Of a DNA stretch of 64,000 bases, positions 21,003-64,000 are shown piece by piece. This DNA comes from G965261475 sp965261475 [NCBI: bacterium] (lineage in GTDB: Bacteria; SAR324; XYD2-FULL-50-16): NCBI GenBank assembly GCA_965261475.1, contig OZ253454.1, positions 1,537,440-1,601,439 of the forward strand. The letters are read 5' to 3'. The position numbers and the translations under genes were made by a program. Position 1 is the first letter of the stretch; each line of letters starts with the position of its first letter. The notes under the pieces are model-generated. The model was not told the origin of the DNA. It saw only the letters and a program-made list of their open reading frames with translations, and made no database searches.

Positions 21003-21062
21003 CTTATTTGTATTGGTAGCTCTAAGGTAGAAAGTCATCAAAAATTTACTTATTGGAATTAA

Positions 21063-21245: not shown

Positions 21246-21247
21246 TT

Positions 21248-21859: not shown

Positions 21860-21871
21860 CAAAAGGTAATT

Positions 21872-22330: not shown

Positions 22331-22332
22331 AA

Positions 22333-23016: not shown

Positions 23017-23120
23017 AAATTTACCGTAGTGATTTAGTCATCAGTGCTAAATAAAAGTTAGAGATAGCGTAGTTTAGTATTTTGCCCTGCTAGGTTGTTA
23101 CTCTATACTTTGCACTTTGC

Positions 23121-36733: not shown

Positions 36734-36740
36734 TATTTAT

Positions 36741-38893: not shown

Positions 38894-39249
38894 GCTAATT
38901 CTTCAAAAATTATAAAAATAAGTAGTTTTGTAATAACTAACTACAGGTTTAGTGGGTAGCAAATATTATTCTAGCTGGCGCCTGCTATTCTCCACTAGAG
39001 CTAGTGTTTGCTGATTTATATACCAGAGGTAAAGTCTAAACAAAATACTAACTCAGCAAAAGCGAAACTCTTACGATTAAGTTAGCGGTAATTTTTATAC
39101 GATAATTTGTAATTCAAAATGATTTTTACGACTACAATCTATAATTATCAAAAATATCTGCTAGTATTACAAAATTATTAAAAGGTTGATTTTGTGAATC
39201 AATAGGTAGTAAAGTAAAAGACTCGCTTTATATTTTTTAAAATTTGTTT
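38894..39249. other. Non-coding gap of about 355 bp before the giant gene array
   Basis: No open frame of useful size. It holds a short perfect inverted repeat CACTAG-AG-CTAGTG (38993-39006), which is too small and lacks a T-run to be called a terminator. The promoter of the first giant gene should lie in the last 100 bp, but no convincing -35/-10 pair stood out. The spacer does not share the sequence found between the later giant genes. Confidence 0.4.
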
Positions 39250-42200
39250 ATGACAGAATTACCTTTAATAATATCCAAAAATTATATTTATTATAAAATT
39301 TTTGTTTTGCTATTTTGTAGCCTCTTTATTCTTGCTTGTAGTAATGATGTAGGTGCACCAACAACAAACATTACAGATGTTGCGCTACACTCACTTGAGC
39401 GGTCTGTCAACACAAAAGAAGGAGAAACTTTTAGATTTGTCTTTGAGTTAAATAAAACAAGCATCAAAGATGTTGTTTTTGATTGGTACTTACAGCATCA
39501 CTCAACTAGCGCAGATGATTTTACGGGAGCCCTAGCAGGTACAAAGAGGATTATAGCAGGAAGCACTACTACAGATATTGTCATTGATACTAGTGATGAT
39601 AACATCTATGAAGGCAATGAGAGCTTTACTTTGAGTATCATCAATGTTATAAGAGCCGTCCCTGATAGTTTATCAGTAGTTGCTAGCATTATAGATAAAG
39701 ATCAACCAATTATTTTGTTTAAGCAAGATAACACCGCACTAGAGGCTGCTAGCTTCAACTATAGGCTACGATTAAATAAAGCAAGCATCAAAGATGTCGT
39801 TTTTGATTGGTTCATACAACATCACTCAACTAGCACAGGTGATTTTAGAGGAGCCCTAGCAGGCTCACAGCTGATTAGAGCAGGAAGCACCACGGCAACT
39901 ATTAGCATTGATACTAGTGATGATACTATCTACGAGGGCAACGAGGACTTTACCTTACATATTACCAATGTTACAGGAGCTACCCCTGATAGTTTATTAG
40001 TAGATAGCAGTATTATAGATGATCAAGATAAACCAATTATTTCGTTTAAGCAAGATAGCACTACCACAGAGGGTGCTAGTCTCAGCTACAGCTTGCAATT
40101 AAATCAAGCAAGTGCTCTAGATGCTAGCTTTGATTGGTACTTGCAGCATAGCTCAACTAGCACAGGTGATTTTAGAGGAGCCCTAGCAGGCTCACAGCTA
40201 ATTAGAGCAGGAGATACTACAGCAACTATTAGCATTGATACCAGTGATGATAATATTTACGAGGGCAACGAGGACTTTACCTTACATATTACCAATGTTA
40301 TAGGAGCTACCCCTGACGCTCTAGTTGCAAGTGGTAGCATTATAGAAAATGACCCTCAACCAACCATTGTCTTTGAGCAAGCAACTATCGTTGCTCTAGA
40401 GGGTAATATGCTCGTCTATAGACTACAATTAAATAGGGTAAGTGTTGCAGATGTTAGTTTTGATTGGTACTTGCAGCATAGCTCAACTAGCAGCAGTGAT
40501 TTTAGAGGAGTTACAGCTGGGAGACAGCAGATTAGAGCAGGAGATACCACCACAGCTATTAGCATTGATACCAGTGATGATAATATTTACGAGGGCAACG
40601 AGGACTTTACCTTACATATTACCAATGTTACAGGAGCTACCCCTGACGCTCTAGTTGCAAGTGGTAGCATTATAGAAAATGACCCTCAACCAACCATTGT
40701 CTTTGAGCAAGCAACTATCGTTGCTCTAGAGGGTAATATGCTCGTCTATAGACTACAATTAAATAGGGTAAGTGTTGCAGATGTTAGTTTTGATTGGTAC
40801 TTGCAGCATAGCTCAACTAGCACTAGTGATTTTAGAGGAGTTACAGCTGGGAGACAGCAGATTAGAGCAGGAGATACCACCACAGCTATTAGCATTGATA
40901 CCAGTAATGATACTATTTACGAGGGCAATGAGGATTTTAGCCTCAATATTATCAATGTTACGGGAGCTTCTCCTAGTGCTCTAGTAGCAGATGGCAGGAT
41001 TATAGACAGTGACGTCCAACCAACCATTGACTTTGAGCAAGACTATAGTAGCGTAACAGAAGGTGGTAGTTTGAGCTATACTTTGCAACTAACTAATACT
41101 AGTACTACAGATATTAGCTTTGATTGGTTAGTGCAACATAGCTCAACTAGCACTAGTGATTTTACGGGCATTATAGCAAGCTCACAGAGAATTGCGGCAG
41201 GGGATACTACAGCAACTATTAGCATTGATACCAGTAATGATACTATTTACGAGGGCAACGAGGACTTTACCTTACATATTACCAATGTTACAGGAGCTAC
41301 CCCTGACGCTCTAGTTGCAGATGGCAGGATTATAGACAGTGACGTCCAACCAACCATTGACTTTGAGCAAGACTATAGTAGCGTAACAGAAGGTGGTAGT
41401 TTGAGCTATACTTTGCAATTAACTCATACTAGCACTAGAGATATTGCTTTTGATTGGTACTTGCAGCATAGCTCAACTAGCACTAGTGATTTTACGGGCA
41501 TTATAGCAGACTCACAGCAGATTAGAGCAGGAGACACCACTACAACTATTAGCATTGATACTAGCGATGATAGTATCTATGAGGGTGACGAGAGCTTTGT
41601 TTTACATATTACAAATATTCGAGGAGCTACCCCTGATAGACTAGAAGCAGGTGGCAGGATTATAGACAATGACCCTCAACCAACCATTGACTTTGAGCAA
41701 GACTATAGTAGCGTAACAGAAGGTGGTAGTTTGAGCTATACTTTGCAACTAACTAATACTAGTACTACAGATATTAGCTTTGATTGGTTAGTGCAACATA
41801 GCTCAACTAGCACTAGTGATTTTACGAGTGCTATATTCGGCACGCAGCTGATTAGAGCAGGGGATACTAGTACAACTATTAGCATTGATACTAGTGATGA
41901 TAGTATCTATGAGACAGATGAGATTTTTACTCTCAATATTATCAATGTTATAGGAGCTACCCCTGATAGGCTAGAAGCAAGTGGTAGCATTATAGAAAAT
42001 GACCCTCAACCAATTATTTCGTTTGAGCAAGATAGCACTGCCACAGAGGGTGCTAGTCTCAGCTACAGATTGCAATTAAATAAAGCAAGTGCTCTAGATG
42101 TCAGCTTTGATTGGTTCGTGCAACATAGCTCAACTAGCACTAGTGATTTTACGGGAGCCCTAGCAGGTACAAAGAGGATTAGAGCAGGAAGCACTACCAC

Positions 42201-45200
42201 AGATATTGTTATTGATACCAGTAATGATACTATCTACGAGACAGATGAGATTTTTACCTTAAATATTACAAATATTCGAGGAGCTACCCCTGATAGGCTA
42301 GAAGCAGGAGGCAGGATTATAGAAAATGACCCTCAACCAACCATTGACTTTGAACAAGACTATAGTAGCGTAACAGAAGGTGGTAGTTTGAGCTATATTT
42401 TGCAATTAAACAAAGCAAGCGCCCTAGATGTCAGCTTTGATTGGTACTTGCAGCATAGCTCAACTATTGCTGAGGATTTTACGGGAGCCCTAGCAGGTAC
42501 AAAGAGGATTAGAGCAGGAAGCACTACTACAGACATTGTCATTGACACTAGTGATGACCTCATACCAGAGCTAGCCGAAGATTTTACCTTGCATATTACA
42601 AGTATTAGAGGAGCTACTCCTGATAGTTTATCAATGCTTATTATTATTGCAGAAAGTGATATAGGTGTTAGTGTAGATTACGATGGTAATGGACTCATAG
42701 ATCTTGTAACACAGGAGTACTTTGATAATATTCGCTATAATGTAGCAGGTACAAGCTACAAAACTAGCACTACTGATACAGGTAAGAATTGCGGAGACAA
42801 TATTTGTCGTGGCTACGAGCTCTTAGCTAATATTGCTTTGAATACAAATTGGCAACCCATAGGCAGTACAAGTGATCCGTTTACTAGTATTTTGCAGGGT
42901 AACGGCTATAGCATCACAAACCTTGCTATTGACAGAGGAAATAATATTGGCTTATTCGCCGCTTTATCTGGAGCTACGATTGATGACTTGGTAGTAGAAG
43001 TAGCCTCTATTAGTGGTGATAATAATGTAGGCGCTCTAGCAGGTAGTGCAGCAAATAGTATTATTAACAAGGTACAAATTAGAGCAGCAAATACTAACAG
43101 TAAACTCTCAGCAACAGGAGCAAACATAGGGGGCATACTAGGAGCAATCACAGGTACAACTATTACAAATGTCATTAGTGATTTGAGTATAGTAGGAGGT
43201 AATGATGATAGTGCAGATAATGTAGGCGGAATTGTTGGCTATGTATCAAGTAGTGATATTAGCTATGCTACTAGTAGCGGCAGTGTGTCTGCGAGTGGTG
43301 GAGTTGATTTTGTAGGAGGCTTGTTGGGGCAGGTACACTATAGTTCTACAGTTAGTTATAGTAGTGCTAGTGGCAGCGTTACGAGTAGTGGAGATGACAA
43401 TAGGGCGTACGGTGGTTTGGTCGGAACTATGAGAATCAACTCTAATGTTAGCTATAGCAGTGCTAGTGGCAGTGTTACTAGTAGCGGAGAAAATAATAAC
43501 AATTACGGCGGTTTAGCTGGCAGAGTAGAGGTTAGTTCTAAAGTTAGCTATAGCAGCGCTAGTGGTAGCGTTACTAGTAGTGGAGATGACAATAAAAATT
43601 ACGGCGGTTTGGTTGGTTTTTCTGCTGGAGAAGTCCGGCATAGCTGGTCTAGTAGCTCTGTATTTGCCAGCAATCCAGCAGGTTTGGTAGGCAATAATAA
43701 AGGCAATAATAAAGGTAATTTAAAATTTAGTTATGCCCTAGGTTTTGCATCTTATGGATTGGTTAATACGAATACAGGCACTATAACTAATAGCTATTGG
43801 AATAGCGAGACTAGTGGAGCACTATTAGCACCTGTCATAGGCAGTGTGACAAACATTGGCTTTAGTGATACAGCTGGTATGCTAGCTTCCACTGGCTCTG
43901 CTGGAGCTACGATTTTCGAAGATTTTGCAGACGCTACTGATGAACATAACCGAAAGATTTGGACTTTTGCAAGCGGTAATTACCCTGTAATTACAGAGCT
44001 AGGGCTAGACAAACAAGCGGTTAGTCTTGCCTATGGTTTATTACGACTTGCTAGTCCCTATGTCAGCGACAATACTCTAGACAGTTTTTTAGGAGGCACT
44101 CTCAATAATGAAAATCTTGAGCTGATTGCTAATAGTTACAACGCTAGGGACACTCTAGCTATTTTAGATGTCAATTTACTACAGAGTAACAGTGCTATTT
44201 GCGCTGCTGGTAGTACAGATACCATAATGACTACGACAGGTGCTAATGGTGCTACTATTACTCTACAAAAAATAGCAGGAAGTATTGAGATTGAAAAAAG
44301 CCCAAGCAATTCTTGTGAAATTATTTTCTCAAATCAAAATCCACAGACCGATGGTACTTTACAACTAGCTGCTATCATTAGCAAAGGAGCTGCTAGTCTT
44401 ACCAAAAAGTTTGAAATTACTCTAAACACTATTCAATCAAGAATTTCTTTACAACCTCCAACTCTCAGCACTAGAGAAGGTGATGAGTTGGTATTTACAC
44501 TAGAATTAAACCATAGGGCTCGTAGCACTCTGAGCTTTGATTGGTTTGTACAACATATCTCAACTAGTACTAGTGATTTTACGGGAGCTATTTTTGGCTC
44601 TAAGACAATCTTAGCTAAGGATACTGATGCTACTATTGTGCTACAAATCAAGGATGATGACAGACCAGAGCCAGCCGAAGACTTTACTTTGAATATTACA
44701 AATATTAGGGGAGTTATCCCTGATAGTTTATCAGCGTCCATCACTATTTTAGAAAATGATCTCACCGTAGATTACAACAAAAATGGACTCATAGATATTA
44801 TAACACAGGAGTACTTGGATCATATTCGCTATAATTTAGCAGGTACAAGCTACAAAACTAGCGCTAGCGATGCAAGCGTGAAATGTGGAGGCAGTGATTG
44901 TCGTGGTTACGAGCTCTTAGGTGATTTTGATTTGAGTTCCTTTGCAAACTGGCAGCCTATAGGCAGTCAAAACGATCCTTTTACTAGTATTTTGCAGGGC
45001 AATGGTTATAGCATCGCAAACCTTGTTATTGACGGTGGGGATTATCTTGGCTTATTCTCCGCTTTATCTGGAGCTACGATTGATAACTTGGTAGTAGAAG
45101 TAGCCTCTATTGCTGGTGATAGTGATGTAGGCGCTCTAGCAGGCAGGGCAGAAAATAGCGCTATTAGCAGGGTACAAATTAGAGCAGTAGATGTTAACAG

Positions 45201-46722
45201 CAAACTTCAAGCAACAGGAGCAAACATAGGGGGCATACTAGGCAGAATTACAGATACAACTATTACAAATGTCACTAGTGATTTGAGTATAGTAGGCGGT
45301 AACACAGATAATGCAGATAATGTAGGAGGAATTGTTGGGCATGTATCAAGTAGTGATATTAGCTATGCTTATAGTAGCGGCAGTGTGTCTGTTATAGGCA
45401 GTGATCCTGATAATGTAGGTGGTTTGGTAGGATATATGCAGAATAATTCTACAATTAGCTATAGTAGCGCTAATGGTAGCGTGGCTAGTAACGGAAGCAA
45501 CAATTGGGCTTTTGGTGGTTTGGTAGGATATATGCAGAATAATTCTACAATTAGCTATAGTAGCGCTAATGGTAGCGTGGCTAGTAACAGTGGATTTAGT
45601 GCTAAATTTTATGGTGGTTTGGTGGGGCGGAGTATTAGCTCTGATATTAGCTATAGCAGCGCTAGTAGCAGTATTAGTAACAGTGGAATTTCTGTTCAGT
45701 ATTTTGGTGGTCTAGTAGGAGGATTGACTAATTCTACAATTAGCTACAGCAGTAGCAGTAGTAGTGTTAGTAGCAGTGGCAGTAATACTCGGTATTTTGG
45801 TGGTCTAGCAGGAGGATTGACTAATTCTACAATTAGCTACAGCAGTGCTAGTGGTAGTGTTAGTAGCAATGGAGCAGACAGCTATAATTACGGTGGTTTA
45901 GCAGGACATGTAGATAGTAGTTCTACAATTAGCAACAGCAGTGCTAGCGGTAGTATTAGCAATAGCAGCGTTTATGGCGGTTTGGTGGGTTCGAATTCTG
46001 GTAACCTAGGTTTTAGCTATGCCCTGGGTATTAGTGGTTTTGGATTGGTTGCTACGAATACAGGAACTATAAAAAATAGCTACTGGAATATTGAGACTAG
46101 TGGAGCACTAGCAGCAGCAAGTCGTATAGGTGTTTCTGCAAACATTGCCTCTAGTGATACAGCTGGTATGCTAGGCTCCACTGGCTCCGCTAACGCTAGG
46201 ATTTTCAAAGGTTTTTTTGATGCTACCGATGAGCATAACCGAAATATTTGGACTTTTGCAAGTGATAGTTACCCCGTAATTACAGAGCTAGGAATAGACG
46301 AGCAGGCGGTCGCTCTTGCCTACGGCTTACTACGACTTGCCCACCCTACAACTACTGGTGGAGTATCTAGCTTCTTAGGTGGCACTTTGCATAATGAAAA
46401 TATTGAACTTGATGCTAATGATTACAGCGCTGGTAGCCCTCTAGCTATTTTAGATGTTAATTTACTACAGAGCAGTCGCGCTACTTGCACTGCTGGTAGC
46501 ACAGATAGCATCATAACTACGACAGGCGCTAACCAAGCAGTAGTTACACTGAGTATCACCGCAGCAACTAACAATTTGCATGAGCACATTGTTTATACAG
46601 ATTGTAGTATAGCTTTTGATAGAGCAGCTGTGATCCAAGCAGGTTATAGGCTACAACTAGCTGCGACAATTACCAAAGGCTCAGCTATCCTGAGTAAAAA
46701 ATTCGTGATAAACTTTCAGTAG
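39250..46722 (+). CDS. Giant Calx-beta/GLUG repeat surface lipoprotein, paralogue 1
   Basis: About 2490 residues from the ATG at 39250. A lipoprotein signal ends in lipobox ILAC (Cys30). Ten consecutive Calx-beta-like units of about 110 residues follow, each with an FDWYLQHSSTSTSDF-type centre, then ISIDTSDDxIYEGNEDF and a final DNDPQPTI. A GLUG cassette comes next (about 42670-44000), opening with the calcium-loop-like DYDGNGLIDLVTQEYF. After it come a linker, an eleventh Calx-beta unit (about 44440-44760), a second GLUG cassette, and a C-terminal domain ending KKFVINFQ. Such domains bind calcium and occur in adhesins and biofilm proteins. Outer-membrane anchoring and an adhesion role are inferred. 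G+C is clearly higher than in the housekeeping genes. Confidence 0.85.
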   Translation: MTELPLIISKNYIYYKIFVLLFCSLFILACSNDVGAPTTNITDVALHSLERSVNTKEGETFRFVFELNKTSIKDVVFDWYLQHHSTSADDFTGALAGTKRIIAGSTTTDIVIDTSDDNIYEGNESFTLSIINVIRAVPDSLSVVASIIDKDQPIILFKQDNTALEAASFNYRLRLNKASIKDVVFDWFIQHHSTSTGDFRGALAGSQLIRAGSTTATISIDTSDDTIYEGNEDFTLHITNVTGATPDSLLVDSSIIDDQDKPIISFKQDSTTTEGASLSYSLQLNQASALDASFDWYLQHSSTSTGDFRGALAGSQLIRAGDTTATISIDTSDDNIYEGNEDFTLHITNVIGATPDALVASGSIIENDPQPTIVFEQATIVALEGNMLVYRLQLNRVSVADVSFDWYLQHSSTSSSDFRGVTAGRQQIRAGDTTTAISIDTSDDNIYEGNEDFTLHITNVTGATPDALVASGSIIENDPQPTIVFEQATIVALEGNMLVYRLQLNRVSVADVSFDWYLQHSSTSTSDFRGVTAGRQQIRAGDTTTAISIDTSNDTIYEGNEDFSLNIINVTGASPSALVADGRIIDSDVQPTIDFEQDYSSVTEGGSLSYTLQLTNTSTTDISFDWLVQHSSTSTSDFTGIIASSQRIAAGDTTATISIDTSNDTIYEGNEDFTLHITNVTGATPDALVADGRIIDSDVQPTIDFEQDYSSVTEGGSLSYTLQLTHTSTRDIAFDWYLQHSSTSTSDFTGIIADSQQIRAGDTTTTISIDTSDDSIYEGDESFVLHITNIRGATPDRLEAGGRIIDNDPQPTIDFEQDYSSVTEGGSLSYTLQLTNTSTTDISFDWLVQHSSTSTSDFTSAIFGTQLIRAGDTSTTISIDTSDDSIYETDEIFTLNIINVIGATPDRLEASGSIIENDPQPIISFEQDSTATEGASLSYRLQLNKASALDVSFDWFVQHSSTSTSDFTGALAGTKRIRAGSTTTDIVIDTSNDTIYETDEIFTLNITNIRGATPDRLEAGGRIIENDPQPTIDFEQDYSSVTEGGSLSYILQLNKASALDVSFDWYLQHSSTIAEDFTGALAGTKRIRAGSTTTDIVIDTSDDLIPELAEDFTLHITSIRGATPDSLSMLIIIAESDIGVSVDYDGNGLIDLVTQEYFDNIRYNVAGTSYKTSTTDTGKNCGDNICRGYELLANIALNTNWQPIGSTSDPFTSILQGNGYSITNLAIDRGNNIGLFAALSGATIDDLVVEVASISGDNNVGALAGSAANSIINKVQIRAANTNSKLSATGANIGGILGAITGTTITNVISDLSIVGGNDDSADNVGGIVGYVSSSDISYATSSGSVSASGGVDFVGGLLGQVHYSSTVSYSSASGSVTSSGDDNRAYGGLVGTMRINSNVSYSSASGSVTSSGENNNNYGGLAGRVEVSSKVSYSSASGSVTSSGDDNKNYGGLVGFSAGEVRHSWSSSSVFASNPAGLVGNNKGNNKGNLKFSYALGFASYGLVNTNTGTITNSYWNSETSGALLAPVIGSVTNIGFSDTAGMLASTGSAGATIFEDFADATDEHNRKIWTFASGNYPVITELGLDKQAVSLAYGLLRLASPYVSDNTLDSFLGGTLNNENLELIANSYNARDTLAILDVNLLQSNSAICAAGSTDTIMTTTGANGATITLQKIAGSIEIEKSPSNSCEIIFSNQNPQTDGTLQLAAIISKGAASLTKKFEITLNTIQSRISLQPPTLSTREGDELVFTLELNHRARSTLSFDWFVQHISTSTSDFTGAIFGSKTILAKDTDATIVLQIKDDDRPEPAEDFTLNITNIRGVIPDSLSASITILENDLTVDYNKNGLIDIITQEYLDHIRYNLAGTSYKTSASDASVKCGGSDCRGYELLGDFDLSSFANWQPIGSQNDPFTSILQGNGYSIANLVIDGGDYLGLFSALSGATIDNLVVEVASIAGDSDVGALAGRAENSAISRVQIRAVDVNSKLQATGANIGGILGRITDTTITNVTSDLSIVGGNTDNADNVGGIVGHVSSSDISYAYSSGSVSVIGSDPDNVGGLVGYMQNNSTISYSSANGSVASNGSNNWAFGGLVGYMQNNSTISYSSANGSVASNSGFSAKFYGGLVGRSISSDISYSSASSSISNSGISVQYFGGLVGGLTNSTISYSSSSSSVSSSGSNTRYFGGLAGGLTNSTISYSSASGSVSSNGADSYNYGGLAGHVDSSSTISNSSASGSISNSSVYGGLVGSNSGNLGFSYALGISGFGLVATNTGTIKNSYWNIETSGALAAASRIGVSANIASSDTAGMLGSTGSANARIFKGFFDATDEHNRNIWTFASDSYPVITELGIDEQAVALAYGLLRLAHPTTTGGVSSFLGGTLHNENIELDANDYSAGSPLAILDVNLLQSSRATCTAGSTDSIITTTGANQAVVTLSITAATNNLHEHIVYTDCSIAFDRAAVIQAGYRLQLAATITKGSAILSKKFVINFQ
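39376..42670 (+). repeat. Calx-beta-like repeat array of paralogue 1 (10 units of about 330 bp)
   Basis: Ten in-frame units, each near 330 bp (110 residues), counted from the FDW motif. Conservation is high at the DNA level. Two successive units (about 40321-40650 and 40651-40980) are almost identical, showing recent duplication. An eleventh unit stands apart near 44440-44760. Confidence 0.85.
42672..44010 (+). repeat. GLUG-type beta-solenoid cassette 1 of paralogue 1
   Basis: Begins VDYDGNGLIDLVTQEYF, passes GYELLANIALNTNWQPIGS and FTSILQGNGYSITNL, then has repeated short coils. The repeated theme is SYSSASGSVTSSG..N..YGGLVG, about 28-32 residues per turn. This is the usual layout of GLUG-motif proteins predicted to fold as right-handed beta-helices. 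A second cassette of this type occupies about 44764-46290. Confidence 0.8.
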
Positions 46723-46807
46723 TTTATTTAAAAAATAGCAGAGCATAATTCTCTTTATATTAAGGCTTGTATTTTACTTGATTTAGGTATAAGCTTGGGG
46801 AGCATTT
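46723..46807 (+). repeat. Conserved spacer between giant genes 1 and 2
   Basis: Starts with AGTTTATT at the stop of gene 1 and contains TTAAGGCTTGTATTTT, which recurs after genes 2 and 3. It ends in a purine-rich GGGGAG (46797-46802), 5 bp before the TTG start of gene 2. The same spacer, slightly diverged, lies at 52403-52513 and 62474-62578, showing that gene plus spacer was the duplicated unit. Confidence 0.75.
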
Positions 46808-52402: not shown

Positions 52403-52513
52403 TTTATTGAAAAACAATGGTAGAGTATAATTTTTTTTTATATTAAGGCTTGTATTTTGCTTGGTTTAGGCATGTTCCTCAGAGGAGCATTTTTATTTTT
52501 TACAAAGATATTG
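52403..52513 (+). repeat. Conserved spacer between giant genes 2 and 3, with a T9 tract
   Basis: Related to the spacers at 46723-46807 and 62474-62578 through AGTTTATT and TTAAGGCTTGTATTTTGCTT. Where the others read ATTCTCTTTATATT, this one has a run of nine T followed by ATATT. A GAGGAG about 27 nt before the ATG corresponds to the ribosome-binding site of gene 2 but is too distant here. Confidence 0.65.
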
Positions 52514-55500: not shown

Positions 55501-58500
55501 CATTGATACTAGCGATGATAGTGCCTACGAAGGCAACGAGGATTTTATCCTCAATATTACCAATATCACAGGAGCTGTCCCTGATAGCCTAGCAGTATTT
55601 GGCAGTATCCTAGATAATGATGCTCAACTGGTGCTAAGCTTTGAGCAAAACTATAGTAGCGTCACAGAGGGCACGAGCCTTACCTATAGACTACAACTAA
55701 ACAGAGCAAGCGCTACAGATGTGAGCTTTGATTGGTCTGTGCAGCATATCTCAACTAACGCTGAGGATTTTACGGGAGCCCTAGCAGGCACACAACTAAT
55801 TAGAGCAGAGGCTACCACTACAACTATTAGTATTGATACTAGCGATGATAGCGCTTATGAAGTTAATGAGGACTTTATCCTCAATATTACTAAGCTTACA
55901 GGAGCTGTCCCTGATAGCCTAGCAGTATTTGGCAGTATCCTAGATAATGATGCTCAACTGGTGCTAAGCTTTGAGCAAAACTATATCAGCACCACAGAGG
56001 GCACGCGCCTCACCTATAGACTACAACTAAACAGAGCAAGCGCTACAGATGTGAGCTTTGATTGGTCTGTGCAGCATATCTCAACTAGCGCTGAGGATTT
56101 TACGGGAATTATAGCAGGTACAAAGAGGATTGCAGCAGGGAGCACTACTGTAGCTATTATTATTGATACCAGCGATGATAGTGCTTACGAAGGCAACGAG
56201 GATTTTATCCTCAATATTACCAAGCTCACAGGAGTTGTCCCTAATAGCCTAGCAGCAAGTGGTAGGATTAGAGACAATGAGCCTCAACCAAGCGTTGTCT
56301 TGTTGGGCTTTGAGCAAGACTATGTTAGTGCTACAGAAGATGTTAACTTCAATTATAGACTGCGGCTAAACAGAGCAAGCGCTGTAGATGTCAGCTTTGA
56401 TTGGTCTGTGCAGCATATTTCAACTAGCGCTGAGGATTTTACGGGAATTATAGCAGGTACAAAGAGGATTGCAGCAGGGAGCACTACTGTAGATATTATT
56501 ATTGATACTAGCGATGATAGCACTTACGAGGGCAATGAGATTTTTATCCTCAATATTACCAATGTCATGGGCACTAGCCCGAGTAGCCTCTCAGTATTTG
56601 GCAGTATCCTAGATAATGATGCTCAACTGGCGCTAAGCTTTGAGCAAGACTATATCAGTGCTACAGAAGATGTTAACTTCAATTATAGACTACAATTAAA
56701 TAAAGTAAGTGCTACAAATGTGAGTTTTGATTGGTCTGTGCAGCATATCTCAACTAGCGCTGAGGATTTTACGGGAATTATAGCAGGCACACAACTAATT
56801 AGAGCAGGGGATACCACTACAACTATTATTATTGAGACTAGCGATGATAGCGCTTATGAAGCTAATGAGGATTTTATCCTCAATATTACCAAGCTCACGG
56901 GAGCTGCCCCTGATAGCCTAGCAGTATTTGGCAGTATCCTAGATAATGATGCTCAACTGGTGCTAAGCTTTGAGCAAAACTATAGTAGCGTCACAGAGGG
57001 CACGAGCTTCATCTATAGACTACAACTAAACAGAGCAAGTGTTACAGACGTCGCTTTTGATTGGTCTGTGCAGCATATCTCAACTAGCAGCAGTGATTTT
57101 ACGGGAATTATAGCAGGCACACAACTAATTAGAGCAGGGGATACCACTACAACTATTAGCATTGATACCAGCGATGATAGTGCCTACGAGGGCGATGAGG
57201 ACTTTATCCTCAATATTACCAAGGTCACGGGAGCGGTCCCTAGTGCTCAAGCAGTATTTGGCAACATCCTAGATAATGACACTCAACTGATGCTAAGCTT
57301 TGAACAAGATTATAGTATTGAAAAAGAGGGTACGAGCCTTACCTATAGACTACAACTAAACAAAGCAAGCACTACAGATGTGAGTTTTGATTGGTCTGTG
57401 CAGCATATCTCAACTAGCAGCAGTGATTTTACGGGAATTATAGCAGGCTCAAAGCTGATTAGAGCAGGAGCTACTAGTGCAACTATTGTTCTTGATACCA
57501 GCGATGATAGTGCCTACGAGGGTAATGAGATTTTTATCCTCAATATCACCAAGATCGCAGGAACTACCCCGAGTAGCCTCTCAGTATTTGGCAGTATCCT
57601 AGATAATGACGCTCAACTGGTGCTAAGCTTTGAACAAAACTATATCAGCACCACAGAAGGCACGAGTCTCACCTATAGACTGCAACTCAACAGAGTAAGT
57701 GCTACAGATATCGCTTTTGATTGGTTCGTGCAGCATAGCTCAACTAGCAGCAGTGATTTTACGGGAGCCCTCATAGGTACAAAGAGGATTGCAGCAGGGA
57801 GCACTACTGCAGCTATTATTATTGATACCAGCGATGATAGTGCCTACGAGGGCGATGAGGATTTTATTCTCAATATTACCAAGGTCACGGGAGCGGTCCC
57901 TAGTGCTCTAGTTGCAAGTGGCAGGGTTATAGACAATGACGTCCAACCAACCATTTTCTTTGAGCAAATAGCCCGCAGTGCGCTAGAGGGTGAGAGCCTC
58001 GATTATATTTTGTTGCTAACCCACACTAGCACTACAGATATTATTTTTGATTGGTCTGTGCAGCATATCTCAACTAGTAGCAGTGATTTTACGGGAGCCC
58101 TCACAGGTACAAAAAGAATTGCGGCAGAGACTACCGCTACAACTATTAGCATTGATACCAGCGATGATAGCACCTACGAGGACAATGAGAATTTTACTCT
58201 AAATATCACTAAGGTCACAGGAGCTACACCCAGTAGATTAGCGGCAGGTGGTAGCATTATAAATAATGACTCTCAACCAACCATTTTCTTTGAGCAAGTA
58301 GCTAGTACTGTACTAGAGGGGGCGAGTATCAGCTATAAGTTACGATTAAAGCAAGCAAGCGCTGTAGATGTTAGCTTTGATTGGTTTGTGCAGCATATCT
58401 CAACTAGCGCTAGTGATTTTAGAGGAGCTACTTTGGGAGGTAAGATATTATTTGCTAGAGATATCACTGCTACTATTGAGTTACAAATCAATGATGATGA

Positions 58501-61500
58501 TAGACCAGAGCAAAGTGAAGTTTTTACTTTGAATATTACAAATATTAGGGGAGCTACCCCTAACAGTTTATCTACATTTATCACTATTTTAAAAAATGAT
58601 CTAGATCTAACAGTAGACTACAACGGCAATGGACTCATAGATATTGTTACACAGGAGCACTTTGATAATATTCGCCATAATGTAGCAGGTACTAGCTACA
58701 AAACTAGTGCTGATGATGTAGGTGTATTTTGCAAAGGCAGTGATTGTCGCGGCTACGAGCTCTTAGCTAATCTTGATTTAAGTGCGTTTGCAAACTGGCA
58801 GTCCATAGGCAGTCAAAATGATCCTTTTACTAGCATTTTGCAGGGCAATGGTTATAGCATTACAAACTTTACTATTGACAGAGGAAATAATATTGGCTTA
58901 TTTGCTGCGTTATCTGGAGCTACGATTGATAACTTGGTAGTAGAAGTAGCCTCTATTGCTGGTGATAGTGATGTAGGTGCTCTAGCAGGTAATGCAGTAA
59001 ATAGTGCTATTAGCAGGATACAAATTAGAGCAGTAAATGCTAGTAGCAAACTCTCAGCAACAGGAGCAAATATAGGGGGCATACTAGGCAGAATTACAGG
59101 TACAACTATTACAAATGTCACTAGTGATTTGAGTATAGTAGGCGGTAACACAGAGAATGCAGATAATGTAGGCGGAATTGTTGGCTATGTATCAAGTAGT
59201 GATATTAGCTATGCTACTAGTAGTGGCAGTGTTTTTGCGAGTGGTGGAGTTGAGTCTGTAGGAGGTTTGGTGGGGGAGGTACACTATAATTCTACAATTA
59301 GCTACAGCAGTGCCAGTGGCAATGTTAGTAGCAGCGGAAATTACAATAATCGTTACGGTGGTTTAGCAGGATATGTAAATAATAATTCTACAGTTAGTTA
59401 CAGTAGTGCTAGTGGTAGCGTTACTAGTAGTGGAGATTACAATAGGGCGTACGGTGGTTTGTTCGGAACTGTGAGCACCAACTCTAATGTTAGCTATAGC
59501 AGTGCTAGTGGTAGTGTTACTAGTAGCGGAGAACTCAGTAATAATTACGGCGGTTTAGTTGGAAGAGTAGAGCGTAATACTCAAGTTAGCTATAGCAATG
59601 CTAGTGGTAGCGTTACTAGCAGTGGACAAGTCAATAAAAATTACGGCGGTTTGGTTGGTTTTTCTATTGGAGAAGTCCGGCATAGCTGGTCTAGTAGCTC
59701 TGTATTTGCTAGCAATCCAGCAGGTTTGGTAAGCAATAATACAGGTAATTTAAAATTTAGTTATGCCCTAGGTTTTGCATCTTATGGATTGGTTAATACG
59801 AATACAGGCACTATAACTAATAGTTATTTGAATAGCGAGACTAGTGGAGCACCATTAGCACGTGTCATAGGCAGTGTGACAAACATTGGCTTTAGTGATA
59901 CAGCTGGCATGCTAGCTTCCACTGGCTCTGCTAACGCTAGGATTTTCAAAGATTTTGCAGACGCTACTGATGAACATAACCGAAAGATTTGGACTTTTGC
60001 AAGTGGTAATTATCCTGTAATTAGGCAGCTAGGAGTAGATTCACAAGCGGTTAGCCTTGCCTATGGTTTATTACGACTTGCTAGTCCCTATGTCAGCGAC
60101 AACACTCTAAACAGTTTTTTAGGAGGCACTCTCAATAATAAAGATATTGAGTTGATTGCTAATAGTTACAATGTTAACGGCACTCTAGCTATTTTAGATG
60201 TCAATTTACTACAGAGTAACAGTGCTATTTGCGCTGCTGGTAGTACAGATACCATAATGACTACGACAGGTGCTAATGGTGCTACTATTGCCCTCCAAAA
60301 AATAGCAGGAAGTATTGAGATTGAAAAAAGCCCAAGCAATTCTTGTGAAATTATTTTCTCAAATCAAAAGACCGATGGTACTTTACAGCTAGCTGCTATC
60401 ATTAGTAAAGGAGCTGCTAGTCTAACTAAAAAGTTTGAGATTACTCTAAATGCTATTCAATCAATAATTACTTTGCAACCTACAACTCTCATCACTAGTG
60501 AGGGAGATAAGTTGGTATTTACACTAGAGTTAAATCATAGGGCTAGCAGAGCTCTTAGCTTTGATTGGTACATACAACATAACTCAACTAGCACTAGTGA
60601 TTTTACGGGAGCTCGTTCTGGGTTTGAGGAAATATCTGCTGGAGATACCACTGCTACTATTGAGTTACAAATCAATGATGACCGCAGACCAGAGCGAGCA
60701 GAAGACTTTAACTTACATATTACAAATATTAGAGGAGTTACTCATAATAACTTGTCAGCGTCCATCACTATTTTAGAAAATGATCTAGATGTAACTCCAG
60801 ACTACGACGGCAATGGATTCATAGATCTTGTTACACAGGAACACTTTGATAATATCCGCCATAATTTAGCAGGTACAAGCTACAAAACTAGCATCAGTGA
60901 TGCAGGTAAGACTTGTGGAGGCAATATTTGTCGTGGCTACGAGCTCTTAGCTAATCTTGATTTGAGTACCTTTGCAAACTGGCAGCCCATAGGCAGTCAA
61001 CATAATCCTTTTACTAGCATTTTGCAGGGCAATGGTTATAGCATTACAAACCTTGCTATTGACGGTGGGGATTATCTTGGCTTATTCTCTGCTTTATCTG
61101 GTGCTACGATTGATAACTTGGTAGTAGAAGTAGCCTCTATTACTGGTGATAATGATGTAGGCGCTCTAGCAGGCATGGCAGAAAATAGCGCTATTAGTAG
61201 GGTACAAATTAGAGCAGTAGATGCTAGTAGCACACTCTCAGCAACAGGAGCAAATATAGGGGGCATGCTAGGAGCAATCACAGGTACAACTATTACAAAT
61301 GTCACTAGTGATTTGAGTATAGTAGGAGGTAACACAGAGAATGCAGATAATGTAGGCGGAATTGTTGGCTATGTATCAAGTAGCACTATTAGCTATGCTA
61401 CTAGTAGCGGCAGTGTTTCTGCGAGCGGTGGAGCTGATAATGTAGGAGGCTTGGTGGGACAGGCACAATATAATTCTAAAATTAGCTACAGTAGCAGCAG

Positions 61501-62473
61501 TGGCAATGTTAGTAGCAGCGGAAATTACAATGAGTATTATGGTGGTTTGGTAGGAAACTTGATGAATTCTGCTCTTAGCTACAGCAGTGCTAGTGGCAAT
61601 GTTAGTAGCAATGGAACTAATAACCTTTATTACGGTGGTTTGTCAGGTGCGTCTGATAGAAGCATCAGGCATAGTTGGTCTAGTGGCTCTGTATTTGCGG
61701 TTAACCTCACAGCTAGCTTGGTGAGTCTTAATAAAGGTTATGTAGATTTTAGTTATGCTATAGGTGCAGCCTTGTATGGATTAGTTGGATTTAATATAGA
61801 TGGTATGATAACTAATAGCTATTGGAATATTGAGACTAGTGGAGCACTAGCAGCAGCAACAACTCATTTAAGTATGTCTGCAAACATTGCCTCTAGTGAT
61901 ACAGCTGGTATGCTAGCTTCCACTGGCTCCGCTAACGCTAGGATTTTCAAAGGTTTTTTTGACGCTACCGATGAGCTTGGCGATAATATTTGGAGTTTTG
62001 CAAATGGTAGTTATCCTGTAATTACAAAGCTAGGAATAGACGAGCAGGCGGTCGCCCTTGCCTACGGCTTATTACGACTTGCCCACCCTACAATTACTAG
62101 TGGAGTATCTAGCTTCTTAGGGGGCACTTTGCATAATGAAGCTATTGCACTTGATGTTGTTGATTACAGCGCTGCTAGCACCCTAGCTATTTTAGATGTT
62201 AATTTACTAAAGAGCAGTAGCGCTACTTGCAGCGTTGGCAGCGTTGGCAGTGGAGGCAGTATCATAACTACGACAGGTGCTAACCAAGCAGTAGTAACAC
62301 TGAGTATCACTGCAGCAACTAACAATTTACATACGCTAATTTTTGATACAGATTGTAGTATAAATTTTAATGGTGCAGCTGTACTCCAAGCAGGTGATAG
62401 GCTACAACTAGTTGCGACAATCACCAAAGGCTCAGCTAGCCTGAGTAAAAAATTCGTAATAAATTTTAGGTAG
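52514..62473 (+). CDS. Giant Calx-beta/GLUG repeat surface protein, paralogue 3 (largest)
   Basis: About 3319 residues from the ATG at 52514, which aligns with the starts of the neighbours; a longer frame from 52457 is less likely. The signal ends in LSVSCG. Ser at -3 makes this a weaker lipobox than in paralogues 1 and 2, so lipidation is probable but not certain. Eighteen Calx-beta-like units (to about 58600; FDWSVQHISTSAEDF type) lead to a GLUG cassette, a nineteenth Calx unit (about 60470-60780), a second GLUG cassette, and a C-terminal domain ending KKFVINFR. The alternation 18+1 with two cassettes mirrors the 10+1 of paralogue 1. Likely an elongated, calcium-stiffened surface protein; the role is inferred. 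Confidence 0.85.
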   Translation: MFSNYISYKIFVLLFFSFLSVSCGTNDINTKTASTTNNNIVITSSERAVNVKEGETFRFVLKLNRASIADVSFDWSVQHISTSSSDFTSALFGSKLIRAGTTTTTISIDISDDSAYEVNEDFILNITNVTGAVPDSLAVFGSILDNDAQLVLSFEQNYSAETEGTRLTYKLQLNRANATDVSFDWSVQHVSTSAEDFTGIIAGTKRIAAGSTSTTISIDTSDDSTYEGDEIFSLNITKVTGTAPDSLAAGGRIRDNDAQSSVVLLGFEQDYSTKIEGTSLAYRLQLNRTSATDVSFDWSVQHISTSAEDFTGIIAGSKLIRAGATTTTISIDTSDDSAYEGDEIFILNITKVTGAVPDSLAVFGSILDNDTQLVLSFEQDYSAQTEGTSLTYRLQLNRANATDVSFDWSVQHISTNAEDFTGIIAGTKRIAAGSTSTTISIDTSDDSAYEGDEIFSLNIIKVTGAVPDSLVVFGSILDNDTQLVLSFEQNYSSLTEGKSLTYRLQLNRANATDVSFDWSVQHISTSAEDFTGIIADTQLIRAGDTTTTIIIETSDDSAYEANEDFILNITKLTGAVPDSLAASGRIRDNEPQPSVVLLGFEQDYISATEDVNFNYRLELNKVSATNVSFDWSVQHISTSAEDFTGIIAGTQLIRAGDITTTISIETSDDSAYEVNEDFILNITNITGAVPDSLAVFGSILDNDAQLVLSFEQNYSSVTEGTSLTYRLQLNRASATDVSFDWSVQHISTSAEDFTGLIAGTQLIRAEATTTTISIDTSDDSAYEANEDFILNITKLTGAVPDSLAVFGSILDNDAQLALSFEQNYISNTEGALLIYRLQLNRASATDVSFDWSVQHISTSSSDFTGIIAGTKRIAAGNTSTIISIDTSDDSAYEGNEIFSLNITKVTGATPDSLAASGRIRDNEPQSSVVLLGFEQDYISVTEDVNFNYRLQLNKVSATNVSFDWSVQHISTSAEDFTGIIAGTQLIRAGDTTTTISIDTSDDSAYEGNEDFILNITNITGAVPDSLAVFGSILDNDAQLVLSFEQNYSSVTEGTSLTYRLQLNRASATDVSFDWSVQHISTNAEDFTGALAGTQLIRAEATTTTISIDTSDDSAYEVNEDFILNITKLTGAVPDSLAVFGSILDNDAQLVLSFEQNYISTTEGTRLTYRLQLNRASATDVSFDWSVQHISTSAEDFTGIIAGTKRIAAGSTTVAIIIDTSDDSAYEGNEDFILNITKLTGVVPNSLAASGRIRDNEPQPSVVLLGFEQDYVSATEDVNFNYRLRLNRASAVDVSFDWSVQHISTSAEDFTGIIAGTKRIAAGSTTVDIIIDTSDDSTYEGNEIFILNITNVMGTSPSSLSVFGSILDNDAQLALSFEQDYISATEDVNFNYRLQLNKVSATNVSFDWSVQHISTSAEDFTGIIAGTQLIRAGDTTTTIIIETSDDSAYEANEDFILNITKLTGAAPDSLAVFGSILDNDAQLVLSFEQNYSSVTEGTSFIYRLQLNRASVTDVAFDWSVQHISTSSSDFTGIIAGTQLIRAGDTTTTISIDTSDDSAYEGDEDFILNITKVTGAVPSAQAVFGNILDNDTQLMLSFEQDYSIEKEGTSLTYRLQLNKASTTDVSFDWSVQHISTSSSDFTGIIAGSKLIRAGATSATIVLDTSDDSAYEGNEIFILNITKIAGTTPSSLSVFGSILDNDAQLVLSFEQNYISTTEGTSLTYRLQLNRVSATDIAFDWFVQHSSTSSSDFTGALIGTKRIAAGSTTAAIIIDTSDDSAYEGDEDFILNITKVTGAVPSALVASGRVIDNDVQPTIFFEQIARSALEGESLDYILLLTHTSTTDIIFDWSVQHISTSSSDFTGALTGTKRIAAETTATTISIDTSDDSTYEDNENFTLNITKVTGATPSRLAAGGSIINNDSQPTIFFEQVASTVLEGASISYKLRLKQASAVDVSFDWFVQHISTSASDFRGATLGGKILFARDITATIELQINDDDRPEQSEVFTLNITNIRGATPNSLSTFITILKNDLDLTVDYNGNGLIDIVTQEHFDNIRHNVAGTSYKTSADDVGVFCKGSDCRGYELLANLDLSAFANWQSIGSQNDPFTSILQGNGYSITNFTIDRGNNIGLFAALSGATIDNLVVEVASIAGDSDVGALAGNAVNSAISRIQIRAVNASSKLSATGANIGGILGRITGTTITNVTSDLSIVGGNTENADNVGGIVGYVSSSDISYATSSGSVFASGGVESVGGLVGEVHYNSTISYSSASGNVSSSGNYNNRYGGLAGYVNNNSTVSYSSASGSVTSSGDYNRAYGGLFGTVSTNSNVSYSSASGSVTSSGELSNNYGGLVGRVERNTQVSYSNASGSVTSSGQVNKNYGGLVGFSIGEVRHSWSSSSVFASNPAGLVSNNTGNLKFSYALGFASYGLVNTNTGTITNSYLNSETSGAPLARVIGSVTNIGFSDTAGMLASTGSANARIFKDFADATDEHNRKIWTFASGNYPVIRQLGVDSQAVSLAYGLLRLASPYVSDNTLNSFLGGTLNNKDIELIANSYNVNGTLAILDVNLLQSNSAICAAGSTDTIMTTTGANGATIALQKIAGSIEIEKSPSNSCEIIFSNQKTDGTLQLAAIISKGAASLTKKFEITLNAIQSIITLQPTTLITSEGDKLVFTLELNHRASRALSFDWYIQHNSTSTSDFTGARSGFEEISAGDTTATIELQINDDRRPERAEDFNLHITNIRGVTHNNLSASITILENDLDVTPDYDGNGFIDLVTQEHFDNIRHNLAGTSYKTSISDAGKTCGGNICRGYELLANLDLSTFANWQPIGSQHNPFTSILQGNGYSITNLAIDGGDYLGLFSALSGATIDNLVVEVASITGDNDVGALAGMAENSAISRVQIRAVDASSTLSATGANIGGMLGAITGTTITNVTSDLSIVGGNTENADNVGGIVGYVSSSTISYATSSGSVSASGGADNVGGLVGQAQYNSKISYSSSSGNVSSSGNYNEYYGGLVGNLMNSALSYSSASGNVSSNGTNNLYYGGLSGASDRSIRHSWSSGSVFAVNLTASLVSLNKGYVDFSYAIGAALYGLVGFNIDGMITNSYWNIETSGALAAATTHLSMSANIASSDTAGMLASTGSANARIFKGFFDATDELGDNIWSFANGSYPVITKLGIDEQAVALAYGLLRLAHPTITSGVSSFLGGTLHNEAIALDVVDYSAASTLAILDVNLLKSSSATCSVGSVGSGGSIITTTGANQAVVTLSITAATNNLHTLIFDTDCSINFNGAAVLQAGDRLQLVATITKGSASLSKKFVINFR
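52620..58600 (+). repeat. Calx-beta-like repeat array of paralogue 3 (18 units)
   Basis: Eighteen units of about 110-113 residues. A longer variant with PSVVLLGFEQDY recurs every few units, suggesting duplication of multi-unit blocks. The last unit (about 58290-58600) is of the paralogue-2 type. Confidence 0.85.
58612..60010 (+). repeat. GLUG-type beta-solenoid cassette 1 of paralogue 3
   Basis: Opens TVDYNGNGLIDIVTQEHF. Its later part (about 59640-60460, including the linker with ICAAGSTDTIMTTTGANGA) is close to identical to 43600-44430 in paralogue 1. A second cassette lies at about 60793-62040. Confidence 0.78.
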
Positions 62474-62578
62474 TTTATTAAAAAAATAGCAGAGCATAAT
62501 TCTCTTTATATTAAGGCTTGTATTTTGCTTTAATTAAGTATATTCTTGGAAGGTTTCTGCTTTTATACAAAGATCTTG
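62474..62578 (+). repeat. Conserved spacer between giant genes 3 and 4
   Basis: Shares AGTTTATT, AGCAGAGCATAATTCTCT and TTAAGGCTTGTATTTTGCTT with the spacer after gene 1. Ahead of the ATG it has a purine-rich GGAAGG, in a register that would read a very short frame ending across the start codon. Any coupling is speculative. Confidence 0.65.
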
Positions 62579-64000
62579 ATGTCTAATAATTATATTTTTT
62601 GTAAAATTTTTGTTTTGCTATTTTTGAGCTTTTTAAGTGTTTCTTGTGGTATTAATAATGTCAACACAAAGACTGCCTCAACAACGAATAATAATATTGT
62701 GATAACTTCTCCTGAGCGAGTTGTTAATATAAAAGAAGGAGAAACTTTTAGATTTGTTGTTAAATTAAACAGAGCAAGCACTACAGATGTGAGCTTTGAT
62801 TGGTCTGTGCAGCATATCTCAACTAGCAGCAGTGATTTTACGGGTGCTCTATTCGGCACACAGCTAATTAGAGCAGGGGATACCACTACAACTATTAGCA
62901 TTGATACCAGCGATGATAGTATTTATGAGACAGATGAGGATTTTATCCTCAATATTACCAATGTCACGGGAGTTACCCCGAGTAGCCTAGCAGCAAGCGG
63001 TAGCATTATAGACAATGACGCTCAACTAGTACTAAGTTTTGAGCAAGACTATAGCATTGAAACAGAGGGCACGAGCCTCACCTATAGACTAGAATTAAAC
63101 AGAGCAAGCGTTACAGACGTCGCTTTTGATTGGTCTGTGCAGCATATTTCAACTAGCGCTGAGGATTTTACGGGTGCTCTATTCGGCACACAGCTAATTA
63201 GAGCAGGGGATACCACCACAACTATTAGCATTGATACCAGCGATGATAGTGCTTATGAGACAGATGAGAACTTTAGCCTCAATATTACCAATGTCACAGG
63301 CGCTACCCCTGATGCTCTAGTAGCAGGTGGCAGGATTATAGACAATGATGCTCAACCAAGTATTGCCTTGCTGAGATTTGAGCAAGTAGATAGTACTACC
63401 ACAGAAGGTGCTAGCTTCACCTATAAACTAGAATTAACTAAAGTAAGCGCTACAAATGTGAGCTTTAATTGGTATGTGCAACATAGCTCAACTAGCATCG
63501 GTGATTTTACGGGTGCTCTATTCGGCACACAGCTAATTAGAGCAGGGGATACTAGCACAACTATTATTATTGATACTAGCGATGATAGCGCTTATGAGAC
63601 AGATGAGAACTTTAGCCTAATTATTACCAATGTCACAGGAGCTACCCCGAGTAGCCTAACAGCAAGCGGCAGGATTATAGACAATGATGCTCAACCAAGT
63701 ATTGCCTTGTTGAGCTTTGAGCAAGACTATCTCAGTGCTACAGAAGATGCTAGTCTTAATTATAAACTACAAATAAGCAAAGCAAGCGCTACAGATGTCG
63801 CTTTTGATTGGTCTGTGCAACATAGCTCAACTAGCACTAGTGATTTTACAGGTGCTCTATTCGGCACACAGCTAATTAGAGCAGGGGATACTAGCACGAC
63901 TATTAGTATTGATACCAGTGATGATAGCGCTTATGAGACAGATGAGAACTTTAGCCTCAATATTACCAATGTCACAGGAGCTACCCCGAGTAGCCTAACA
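62579..64000 (+). CDS. Giant Calx-beta repeat surface protein, paralogue 4 (3' end outside window)
   Basis: The frame from the ATG at 62579 is open to the right edge (474 codons). The N-terminus MSNNYIFCKIFVLLFLSFLS ends VSCG as in paralogue 3, so it is another secreted, probably lipid-anchored protein. Four Calx-beta-like units are within the window. They are marked by FDWSVQHISTSSSDF, FDWSVQHISTSAEDF, FNWYVQHSSTSIGDF and FDWSVQHSSTSTSDF, each followed by TGALFGTQLIRAGDT. The recurrent GALFGTQL and YETDENF variants distinguish this gene's units from those of paralogue 3. GLUG cassettes are expected beyond the window but are not seen. Confidence 0.85.
   Translation, partial: MSNNYIFCKIFVLLFLSFLSVSCGINNVNTKTASTTNNNIVITSPERVVNIKEGETFRFVVKLNRASTTDVSFDWSVQHISTSSSDFTGALFGTQLIRAGDTTTTISIDTSDDSIYETDEDFILNITNVTGVTPSSLAASGSIIDNDAQLVLSFEQDYSIETEGTSLTYRLELNRASVTDVAFDWSVQHISTSAEDFTGALFGTQLIRAGDTTTTISIDTSDDSAYETDENFSLNITNVTGATPDALVAGGRIIDNDAQPSIALLRFEQVDSTTTEGASFTYKLELTKVSATNVSFNWYVQHSSTSIGDFTGALFGTQLIRAGDTSTTIIIDTSDDSAYETDENFSLIITNVTGATPSSLTASGRIIDNDAQPSIALLSFEQDYLSATEDASLNYKLQISKASATDVAFDWSVQHSSTSTSDFTGALFGTQLIRAGDTSTTISIDTSDDSAYETDENFSLNITNVTGATPSSLT
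62690..64000 (+). repeat. Calx-beta-like repeat array of paralogue 4 (4 units in window)
   Basis: Units of about 330-340 bp carrying GALFGTQLIRAGDT and IDTSDDSAYETDENF variants. The array continues past the right edge. Confidence 0.82.

What the first reader, a model, noticed from the sequence alone, without database searches (positions are those of the whole stretch)
39250..64000. Head-to-tail array of at least four giant Calx-beta/GLUG lipoprotein genes
Nearly 25 kb, over a third of the window, is one family of paralogous giant genes in the same orientation, with signal peptides, Calx-beta-like calcium-binding units and beta-solenoid cassettes. The combination of a tandem array, this size and a two-domain alternation looks like a dedicated surface-display system, for example for adhesion, biofilm or host/prey contact. 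I know of no named system with this layout.
Basis: partly seen in the sequence, partly recalled or inferred. Interest (0 to 1): 0.85.

Follow-up and report, generated by a model that had tools for sequence, protein, structure and literature searches.

The report
Tandem giant stalked lipoprotein genes
Four neighbouring giant genes in an unidentified Gram-negative bacterium appear to encode outer-membrane-anchored proteins, each a long calcium-binding stalk, with one or two rod-shaped ends on the three that are complete; this is probably a set of sticky surface proteins built from known parts in an unusual combination.

Summary
Window 39244-64000 holds three complete giant ORFs (A 2492, B 1864, C 3338 aa) and the start of a fourth (D, cut by the window end), all on the + strand, 54-85 bp apart. 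Each begins with a lipoprotein-type signal, then a stalk of about 110-aa units (10, 10, 18, at least 4). In A-C the stalk leads into a GLUG cassette; A and C add one unit and a second cassette. Pfam Calx-beta and GLUG match well above cut-off. Fold comparison ties the stalk to NCX1 calcium-binding domains (from a low-confidence model) and the cassette to IgA1-protease and pertactin solenoids. Median dN/dS between units is 0.38. First and last units are shared between genes; middle units of C form their own groups, those of A and B intermix, so stalks grew by local duplication.

Best reading: outer-membrane lipoprotein adhesins with calcium-stiffened stalks, like tandem Leptospira lig genes in layout and LapA/BapP in stalk type, but members of neither family. 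Not shown: surface location, export route, ligand, organism. No close relative was found in a narrow search. New variant of a known kind.

The parts
39244..46722 (+). Gene A, 2492 aa: lipoprotein-type signal, 10 Calx-beta units, GLUG cassette 1, 1 Calx-beta unit, GLUG cassette 2
39391..42675 (+). Gene A stalk, 10 Calx-beta-like units
42676..44427 (+). Gene A GLUG cassette 1 (internal type)
44449..44769 (+). Gene A single linking Calx-beta unit (A_11)
44770..46719 (+). Gene A GLUG cassette 2 (terminal type)
46723..46807 (.). A-B spacer; resembles the B-C and C-D spacers
46808..52402 (+). Gene B, 1864 aa: signal, 10 Calx-beta units, one GLUG cassette
46949..50239 (+). Gene B stalk, 10 units
50240..52399 (+). 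Gene B GLUG cassette; start resembles A cassette 1, last part resembles A cassette 2; modelled as beta-solenoid
52403..52456 (.). B-C spacer
52457..62473 (+). Gene C, 3338 aa: signal, 18 Calx-beta units, cassette 1, 1 unit, cassette 2
52643..58615 (+). Gene C stalk, 18 units, with a three-unit (999-bp) higher-order repeat
58616..60451 (+). Gene C GLUG cassette 1 (internal type)
60473..60799 (+). Gene C single linking Calx-beta unit (C_19)
60800..62470 (+). Gene C GLUG cassette 2 (terminal type)
62474..62545 (.). C-D spacer
62546..64000 (+). Gene D, first 485 aa: signal and at least 4 Calx-beta units; cut by the window end

Best explanation
A head-to-tail family of at least four giant outer-membrane lipoproteins that act as stalked adhesins or contact proteins. 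The leader is removed and the new N-terminal cysteine is lipidated, anchoring the protein in the outer membrane. The 10-18 Calx-beta units bind calcium and stiffen into a stalk, which holds out a GLUG beta-solenoid (one, or two joined by a single unit) with a small C-terminal part as the contacting end. Unequal recombination and duplication between units change stalk length, while the first unit and the last units stay recognisable between genes. Shown: gene layout, domain families, lipobox pattern, conserved acidic positions, purifying selection, pattern of unit duplication. Inferred: lipidation, surface exposure, calcium binding, adhesion, and any switching.
For: Calx-beta and GLUG far above Pfam cut-offs. 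A profile of the five cassettes matches IgA1 protease, E 3e-14; a three-unit query matches NCX1, E 6.8e-5. The cassette model's better part (about residues 60-500 of 720) aligns to IgA1 proteases (Z 22.4 and 22.3, 264 residues each, rmsd 3.4) and pertactin (Z 21.6, 330 residues, rmsd 3.3). The stalk model, though of low confidence, matches the NCX1 calcium-binding region at E 1.7e-7, and NCX1 or CALX chains fill ranks 1-11. E10, D43, D70, E74 and E77 are invariant in 44 of 44 units, D31 is Asp in 43 of 44; the DD...E..E block aligns with that of NCX1. Lipobox-like motif in 4 of 4 starts, +2 residue S, S, G, G. Median dN/dS 0.38 over 942 usable of 946 unit pairs; 0.35-0.49 over the 10 cassette pairs. 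First units of A-D form one group (100/100); A_10, B_10, C_18, A_11 and C_19 form another (100/99). Two lipid A acyltransferase genes in the same window support a Gram-negative cell.
Against: No lipoprotein translocator (type 1 system, Slam, TpsB) was recognised among the 33 window proteins scanned, but some small ORFs were not scanned and the genome is not held, so this says little. A lipobox does not place a protein on the outer face. The stalk model is poor (mean pLDDT 48.9); in the cassette model residues 1-57 and 507-659 score below 50, and Foldseek alone gave no match under E 0.001 for it. Clustering of units by gene is strong for C (5 changes against 14.5 in shuffles, 0 of 500 as low) but weak for A (8 against 10.0, 37 of 500 as low). 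The pair A_1/B_1 has dN/dS 0.82 at dS 0.03, too few changes to read. Calcium binding and adhesion are untested; no ligand-binding domain was recognised.
Confidence: 0.6

Rival explanations
1. Homophilic cell-cell or matrix proteins: stalks of neighbouring cells pair with each other or with exopolysaccharide (cadherin-like), and the solenoid is a spacer rather than the binding tip.
For: All units share one acidic-site pattern, and some units within a gene are up to 95.5% identical (C_6/C_9, C_7/C_10), which suits repeated weak contacts. PMC12153261 (passages) cites the cadherin-like proteins CabC and CabD with homophilic and heterophilic binding.
Against: No binding data. The cassettes are about as constrained as the units (dN/dS 0.35-0.49 against a median of 0.38), so they do not look like mere spacers.
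Confidence: 0.2
2. Periplasm-facing lipoproteins that span or gird the envelope and are not displayed on the outside.
For: No outer-membrane export partner was recognised among the 33 window proteins scanned; the +2 residues S and G fit ordinary sorting to the outer membrane (rule recalled).
Against: Stalks of 10-18 Ig-like domains plus solenoids seem too long for a periplasm if extended (inference from recalled domain sizes); related domains occur in exported surface proteins.
Confidence: 0.12
3. Protease-less or decayed relatives of M26 IgA1 proteases, with the GLUG cassette as the remnant of an enzyme.
For: Peptidase_M26_N PF05342 above cut-off in A and C (38.4 and 34.4 bits, cut-off 27.7), below it in B (17.5); IgA1 protease is the only PDB sequence match of the cassette profile and the top fold match.
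Against: No HExxH motif in the three complete proteins or in the seen part of D, and no M26 catalytic domain in the Pfam output. Cassette dN/dS of 0.35-0.49 does not look like decay.
Confidence: 0.04
4. Assembly artefact: a smaller number of real genes falsely multiplied.
For: Exact repeats of up to 256 bp exist, and 199 positions repeat an earlier 150-mer.
Against: The 45 longest of 171 self-alignments are only 72-86% identical; the genes differ in unit number and cassette type, and the spacers differ in detail. Frames stay open over 5.6-10 kb.
Confidence: 0.04

Closest known systems
Leptospira Lig proteins (LigA, LigB, LigC)
   Same: Large surface-exposed proteins with a dozen or so tandem Ig-like domains; calcium binding reported (one NMR study did not confirm it for LigB12); ligA and ligB tandem on some chromosomes, with gene conversion inferred between them (PMC7821625, passages; lipoprotein status recalled).
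   Different: Lig domains are about 90 aa bacterial Ig-like (Big) domains; here the units are Calx-beta, about 110 aa, with GLUG solenoid ends and at least four genes. Pfam listed no Big_2 for A-D, only one weak aBig_2 row below cut-off, in a cassette of A.
LapA / Bap-type large adhesins, including BapP of Pseudoalteromonas tunicata
   Same: Calx-beta-type repeats; a calcium effect on biofilm shown for BapP, which also has a predicted Sec signal (PMC12153261, passages). Pfam 'LapA domain' PF20579 matches A-D above cut-off, D barely (27.6 against 27).
   Different: Those are discussed as probable type 1 secretion substrates; here there is an N-terminal lipobox, no RTX motif and a GLUG solenoid end.
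M26 IgA1 / Zmp proteases, GLUG solenoid part
   Same: Solenoid sequence and fold match.
   Different: No HExxH, no catalytic domain listed, different N-terminal part and anchoring.
NCX1/CALX calcium-binding domains
   Same: Unit fold and acidic block.
   Different: Regulatory domains of a eukaryotic exchanger; only a domain-level relation.

Membership tests
Calx-beta domain (PF03160) | Profile match above curated cut-off | tested here: met
   56.8-150.7 bits against 27 in 4 of 4 proteins
Calx-beta domain (PF03160) | Fold of NCX calcium-binding domains | tested here: inconclusive
   Foldseek E 1.7e-7 to 8sgt supports it, but the model has mean pLDDT 48.9
Calx-beta domain (PF03160) | Calcium binding | not testable with these tools
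   Acidic positions conserved but no binding assay
GLUG motif proteins (PF07581) | Profile match above cut-off, repeated about every 30-33 residues | tested here: met
   60.1-94.1 bits against 20.5 in A, B, C; none in the seen part of D; GGx spacing mostly 30-33
M26 / Zmp metallopeptidase | HExxH zinc motif | tested here: not met
   0 of 3 complete proteins, and none in the seen part of D
LapA/RTX adhesin secreted by type 1 system | RTX nonapeptide repeats | tested here: not met
   0 motifs in the 3 complete proteins and in the seen part of D (pattern recalled)
LapA/RTX adhesin secreted by type 1 system | Type 1 secretion genes nearby | tested here: inconclusive
   None recognised among the 33 window proteins scanned; one ABC ATPase sits beside an MlaD gene. 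Right side of the array and rest of genome unseen
LapA/RTX adhesin secreted by type 1 system | N-terminal retention module | not tested
   No model of it was compared; the N-terminus carries a lipobox instead
Leptospira Lig family | Tandem Big_2-type Ig-like domains | tested here: not met
   Pfam lists Calx-beta, not Big_2, for the units
Outer-membrane lipoprotein | Lipobox with cysteine after an N-terminal hydrophobic stretch | tested here: met
   4 of 4 by pattern (recalled)
Outer-membrane lipoprotein | Lipidation and outer-face exposure | not testable with these tools
   Needs biochemistry
Slam- or type II-dependent surface lipoprotein | Cognate translocator | tested here: inconclusive
   Pseudopilin-like genes lie at 35929-37172; no Slam recognised among the proteins scanned; genome not held

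The most novel reading that the evidence does not exclude
A dedicated, expandable surface-display locus: many stalked lipoproteins with interchangeable ends and stalk lengths set by unit recombination, exported by a lipoprotein translocator not yet described, giving the cell a set of reaches and contacts for a host, prey or partner cell.
Probability: 0.15. Interest if true: 0.65.

Novelty: new variant of a known kind. Interest (0 to 1): 0.42.

Why it matters
It would show stalked, calcium-dependent adhesion built on a lipid anchor rather than on type 1 secretion, with stalk length evolving by unit duplication while both ends are kept. It also raises how a protein of up to about 3,300 residues reaches the outer face; [quoted passage not shown]

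Tried and rejected
Horizontal transfer from base composition: the genes are 40-41.5% GC against 32.6% upstream, but their amino acids with the background codons would already give 38.5% against 40.9% seen, so composition gives only weak support. Glu and Lys codon use does differ (GAG 0.67 against 0.27; AAG 0.46 against 0.13); copying of repeats could do this.

Spurious family rows: Rtt106_N, IPT, Metallothio_11, Ubiquitin_2 and SCP2_2 pass a Pfam cut-off in one protein or another but with 0 stretches passing alone; HYDIN-type Ig passes with one stretch, just over its cut-off. NCBIfam rows stayed below their cut-offs. I read these as weak scores summed over repeats and dropped them.

Relatives: the one genome-contig scan used two short patterns (156 stretches) and gave one distant locus, L001 (29% identity; a Cloacimonadota MAG by its title); the match lies in a 519-aa ORF, on which I ran no family search. 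One viral-contig scan: 0 of 93 stretches confirmed. Plasmids: cassette 8 records, stalk 5 records, all under 60% identity; phages 1 record. In the phylum of G001 the cassette profile rings in 63 of 124 genomes and Calx-beta in 12 of 124, 10 over the cut-off, 0 of 14 controls; G001 itself has no Calx-beta match. In the rows shown I saw no contig with both, but the list was cut short. These searches do not show that the array is rare.

Lineage: not resolved. Comparisons of L11 and DapA with PDB sequences did not place it. Lon was compared with G001 only (40% identity).

Promoter and terminator scan of 46600-62700: 33 promoter-like sites against 42.6 expected; 14 terminator-like against 9.0; no use made of either. 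Rfam: three tRNAs only.

Foldseek alone on the cassette model had no match under E 0.001; the VIA second look, limited to Foldseek's own list, gave the high Z values.

Papers on the combination: 'GLUG' with 'Calx-beta' 0 papers; 'GLUG motif' with 'lipoprotein' 1, on Haloquadratum, listing only; Calx-beta with lipoprotein and tandem 5, of which I read passages of one. Searches asked for only some of their terms together; nothing closer stood in the 15, 15 and 12 rows listed.
Full report
Observation. The right-hand 24.8 kb of the window holds four long + strand ORFs: A 39244-46722 (2492 aa), B 46808-52402 (1864 aa), C 52457-62473 (3338 aa) and D 62546 to the window end (485 aa seen). Spacers, stop to listed start, are 85, 54 and 72 bp. 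TRF reports 330-339-bp arrays in each, with 93-96-bp arrays in A, B and C. Tblastn and blastn of the array found nothing like it in the first 39243 bases at E 1e-3.

Anatomy. Each ORF starts with a hydrophobic stretch ending in a lipobox-like motif (LFILAC in A and B, FLSVSC in C and D), followed by S or G at +2. Then come units of about 110 aa, counted by FDW/FNW: 10 in A, 10 in B, 18 in C, at least 4 in D, plus a single linking unit in A and in C, 44 in all with the last cut. A, B and C continue into GLUG cassettes: two in A, one in B, two in C; the five are 65-86% identical over aligned positions. So the layout is stalk then cassette, not a regular alternation.

Domain identity. Pfam gives Calx-beta and LapA-domain matches above cut-off in all four, GLUG in A-C, and Peptidase_M26_N above cut-off in A and C but below it in B. 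Some further rows above cut-off are artefacts of summing over repeats. By sequence, the cassette profile matches IgA1 protease in the PDB (E 3e-14) and a three-unit query matches NCX1 (E 6.8e-5). AlphaFold2 of the B cassette with 5 rows: mean pLDDT 63.6, with many beta strands over roughly residues 60-500. VIA gives Z 22.4 and 22.3 to IgA1 proteases and 21.6 to pertactin, with an alginate epimerase at 19.8 and phage tail proteins at 16-19; so the fold is a general beta-solenoid, and the sequence match is what points to the GLUG family. Foldseek alone had no hit under E 0.001. AlphaFold2 of three units with 31 paralogous rows was poor (mean pLDDT 48.9); Foldseek still put NCX1 and CALX chains in its first 11 rows.

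Calcium site. In 44 units, E10, D43, D70, E74 and E77 are invariant, D31 is Asp in 43 and D69 in 41. The DD...E..E block lines up with the same block in NCX1. Binding itself is inferred.

Evolution. Over 946 unit pairs, 942 usable, median dN/dS is 0.38; over the 10 cassette pairs it is 0.35-0.49. A_1/B_1 stands at 0.82, with dS of only 0.03. The nearest unit lies in the same gene for 31 of 44. In the tree the first units of all four genes group together (100/100), as do A_10, B_10, C_18, A_11 and C_19 (100/99). Of the rest, most C units fall in groups of their own, A_2 to A_5 sit among B units, A_6 to A_8 group together, and D_2 to D_4 group with modest support (81/70). Clustering by gene beats shuffled labels clearly for C (0 of 500 as low), B and D (2 of 500 each) and weakly for A (37 of 500). 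Gene C has a three-unit superrepeat: identity at a lag of 999 bp (0.705) exceeds that at 330 bp (0.678) and 669 bp (0.564). The B cassette begins like A cassette 1 (93% over the first 60 columns) and ends like A cassette 2 (70% against 40% over the last), which fits a fusion of the two cassette types by deletion, or the reverse duplication. These patterns suit unequal recombination with both ends of the stalk conserved.

Setting. The array follows an AMIN/Amidase_3 cell-wall amidase gene (37244-38893) and, on the other strand, pseudopilin-like genes (35929-37172), one of which passes the GspH cut-off. Lipid A acyltransferases lie at 15815-17974. No lipoprotein translocator was recognised among the 33 window proteins scanned. 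No whole genome is held and I could not place the organism.

Mechanism. The most likely reading is a family of outer-membrane lipoproteins with calcium-stiffened stalks carrying beta-solenoid ends, serving attachment or cell contact. Layout, domains, lipobox, selection and duplication pattern are shown; lipidation, surface exposure, calcium binding and adhesion are inferred. Export is unexplained: pullulanase shows that a type II system can carry a lipoprotein out, and Slam proteins serve others (PMC7857515, passages), but neither is tied to this locus.

Known relatives. Tandem ligA/ligB genes of Leptospira, with Ig-like domains reported to bind calcium and gene conversion helped by tandem arrangement (PMC7821625, passages), are the closest precedent for the layout. 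LapA and BapP (PMC12153261, passages) are the closest for the stalk; BapP too has a predicted Sec signal that its authors leave unresolved. Membership fails for both groups on tested features (no Big_2 rows; no RTX motif). I found no paper on the Calx-beta plus GLUG combination in the searches, which cover open-licence papers only and of which the last three asked for only part of their terms together.

Verdict. Real, well-formed and unusual in combination, but built of known parts and with a known parallel in layout. Interest 0.42.

Noticed in passing
window 52643-58615: Gene C stalk has a 999-bp, three-unit higher-order repeat on top of the 330-bp unit.
   Followed up: yes
window 50240-52399: The B cassette is a mosaic: start like A cassette 1, end like A cassette 2.
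   Followed up: partly
window 52403-52456: The B-C spacer has a run of nine T where the A-B and C-D spacers read TTCTCTTT; a possible slippage site, untested.
   Followed up: no
window 3483-4385 (-): DapA matches five solved chains at over 300 bits, three of them named chloroplastic, and any other solved DapA at no more than 157 bits in the 60 rows shown of 70.
   Followed up: partly
window 20930-24101: tRNA-Trp, nusG, rplK and an L1-like ORF are followed by a phosphotransferase-like gene rather than rplJ (expected order recalled; L1 named by reading).
   Followed up: no
window 15815-17974 (-): Two adjacent lipid A acyltransferase genes.
   Followed up: no
window 35929-37172 (-): Three small ORFs with prepilin-like N-termini by reading, beside the amidase gene: one passes the GspH cut-off, one scores weakly to minor pilin models, one matches nothing.
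   Followed up: partly
L001 9698-15065: The Cloacimonadota locus has two similar ORFs (519 and 506 aa) alternating with two repeat-like ORFs, with similar C-terminal tails, by reading only.
   Followed up: no
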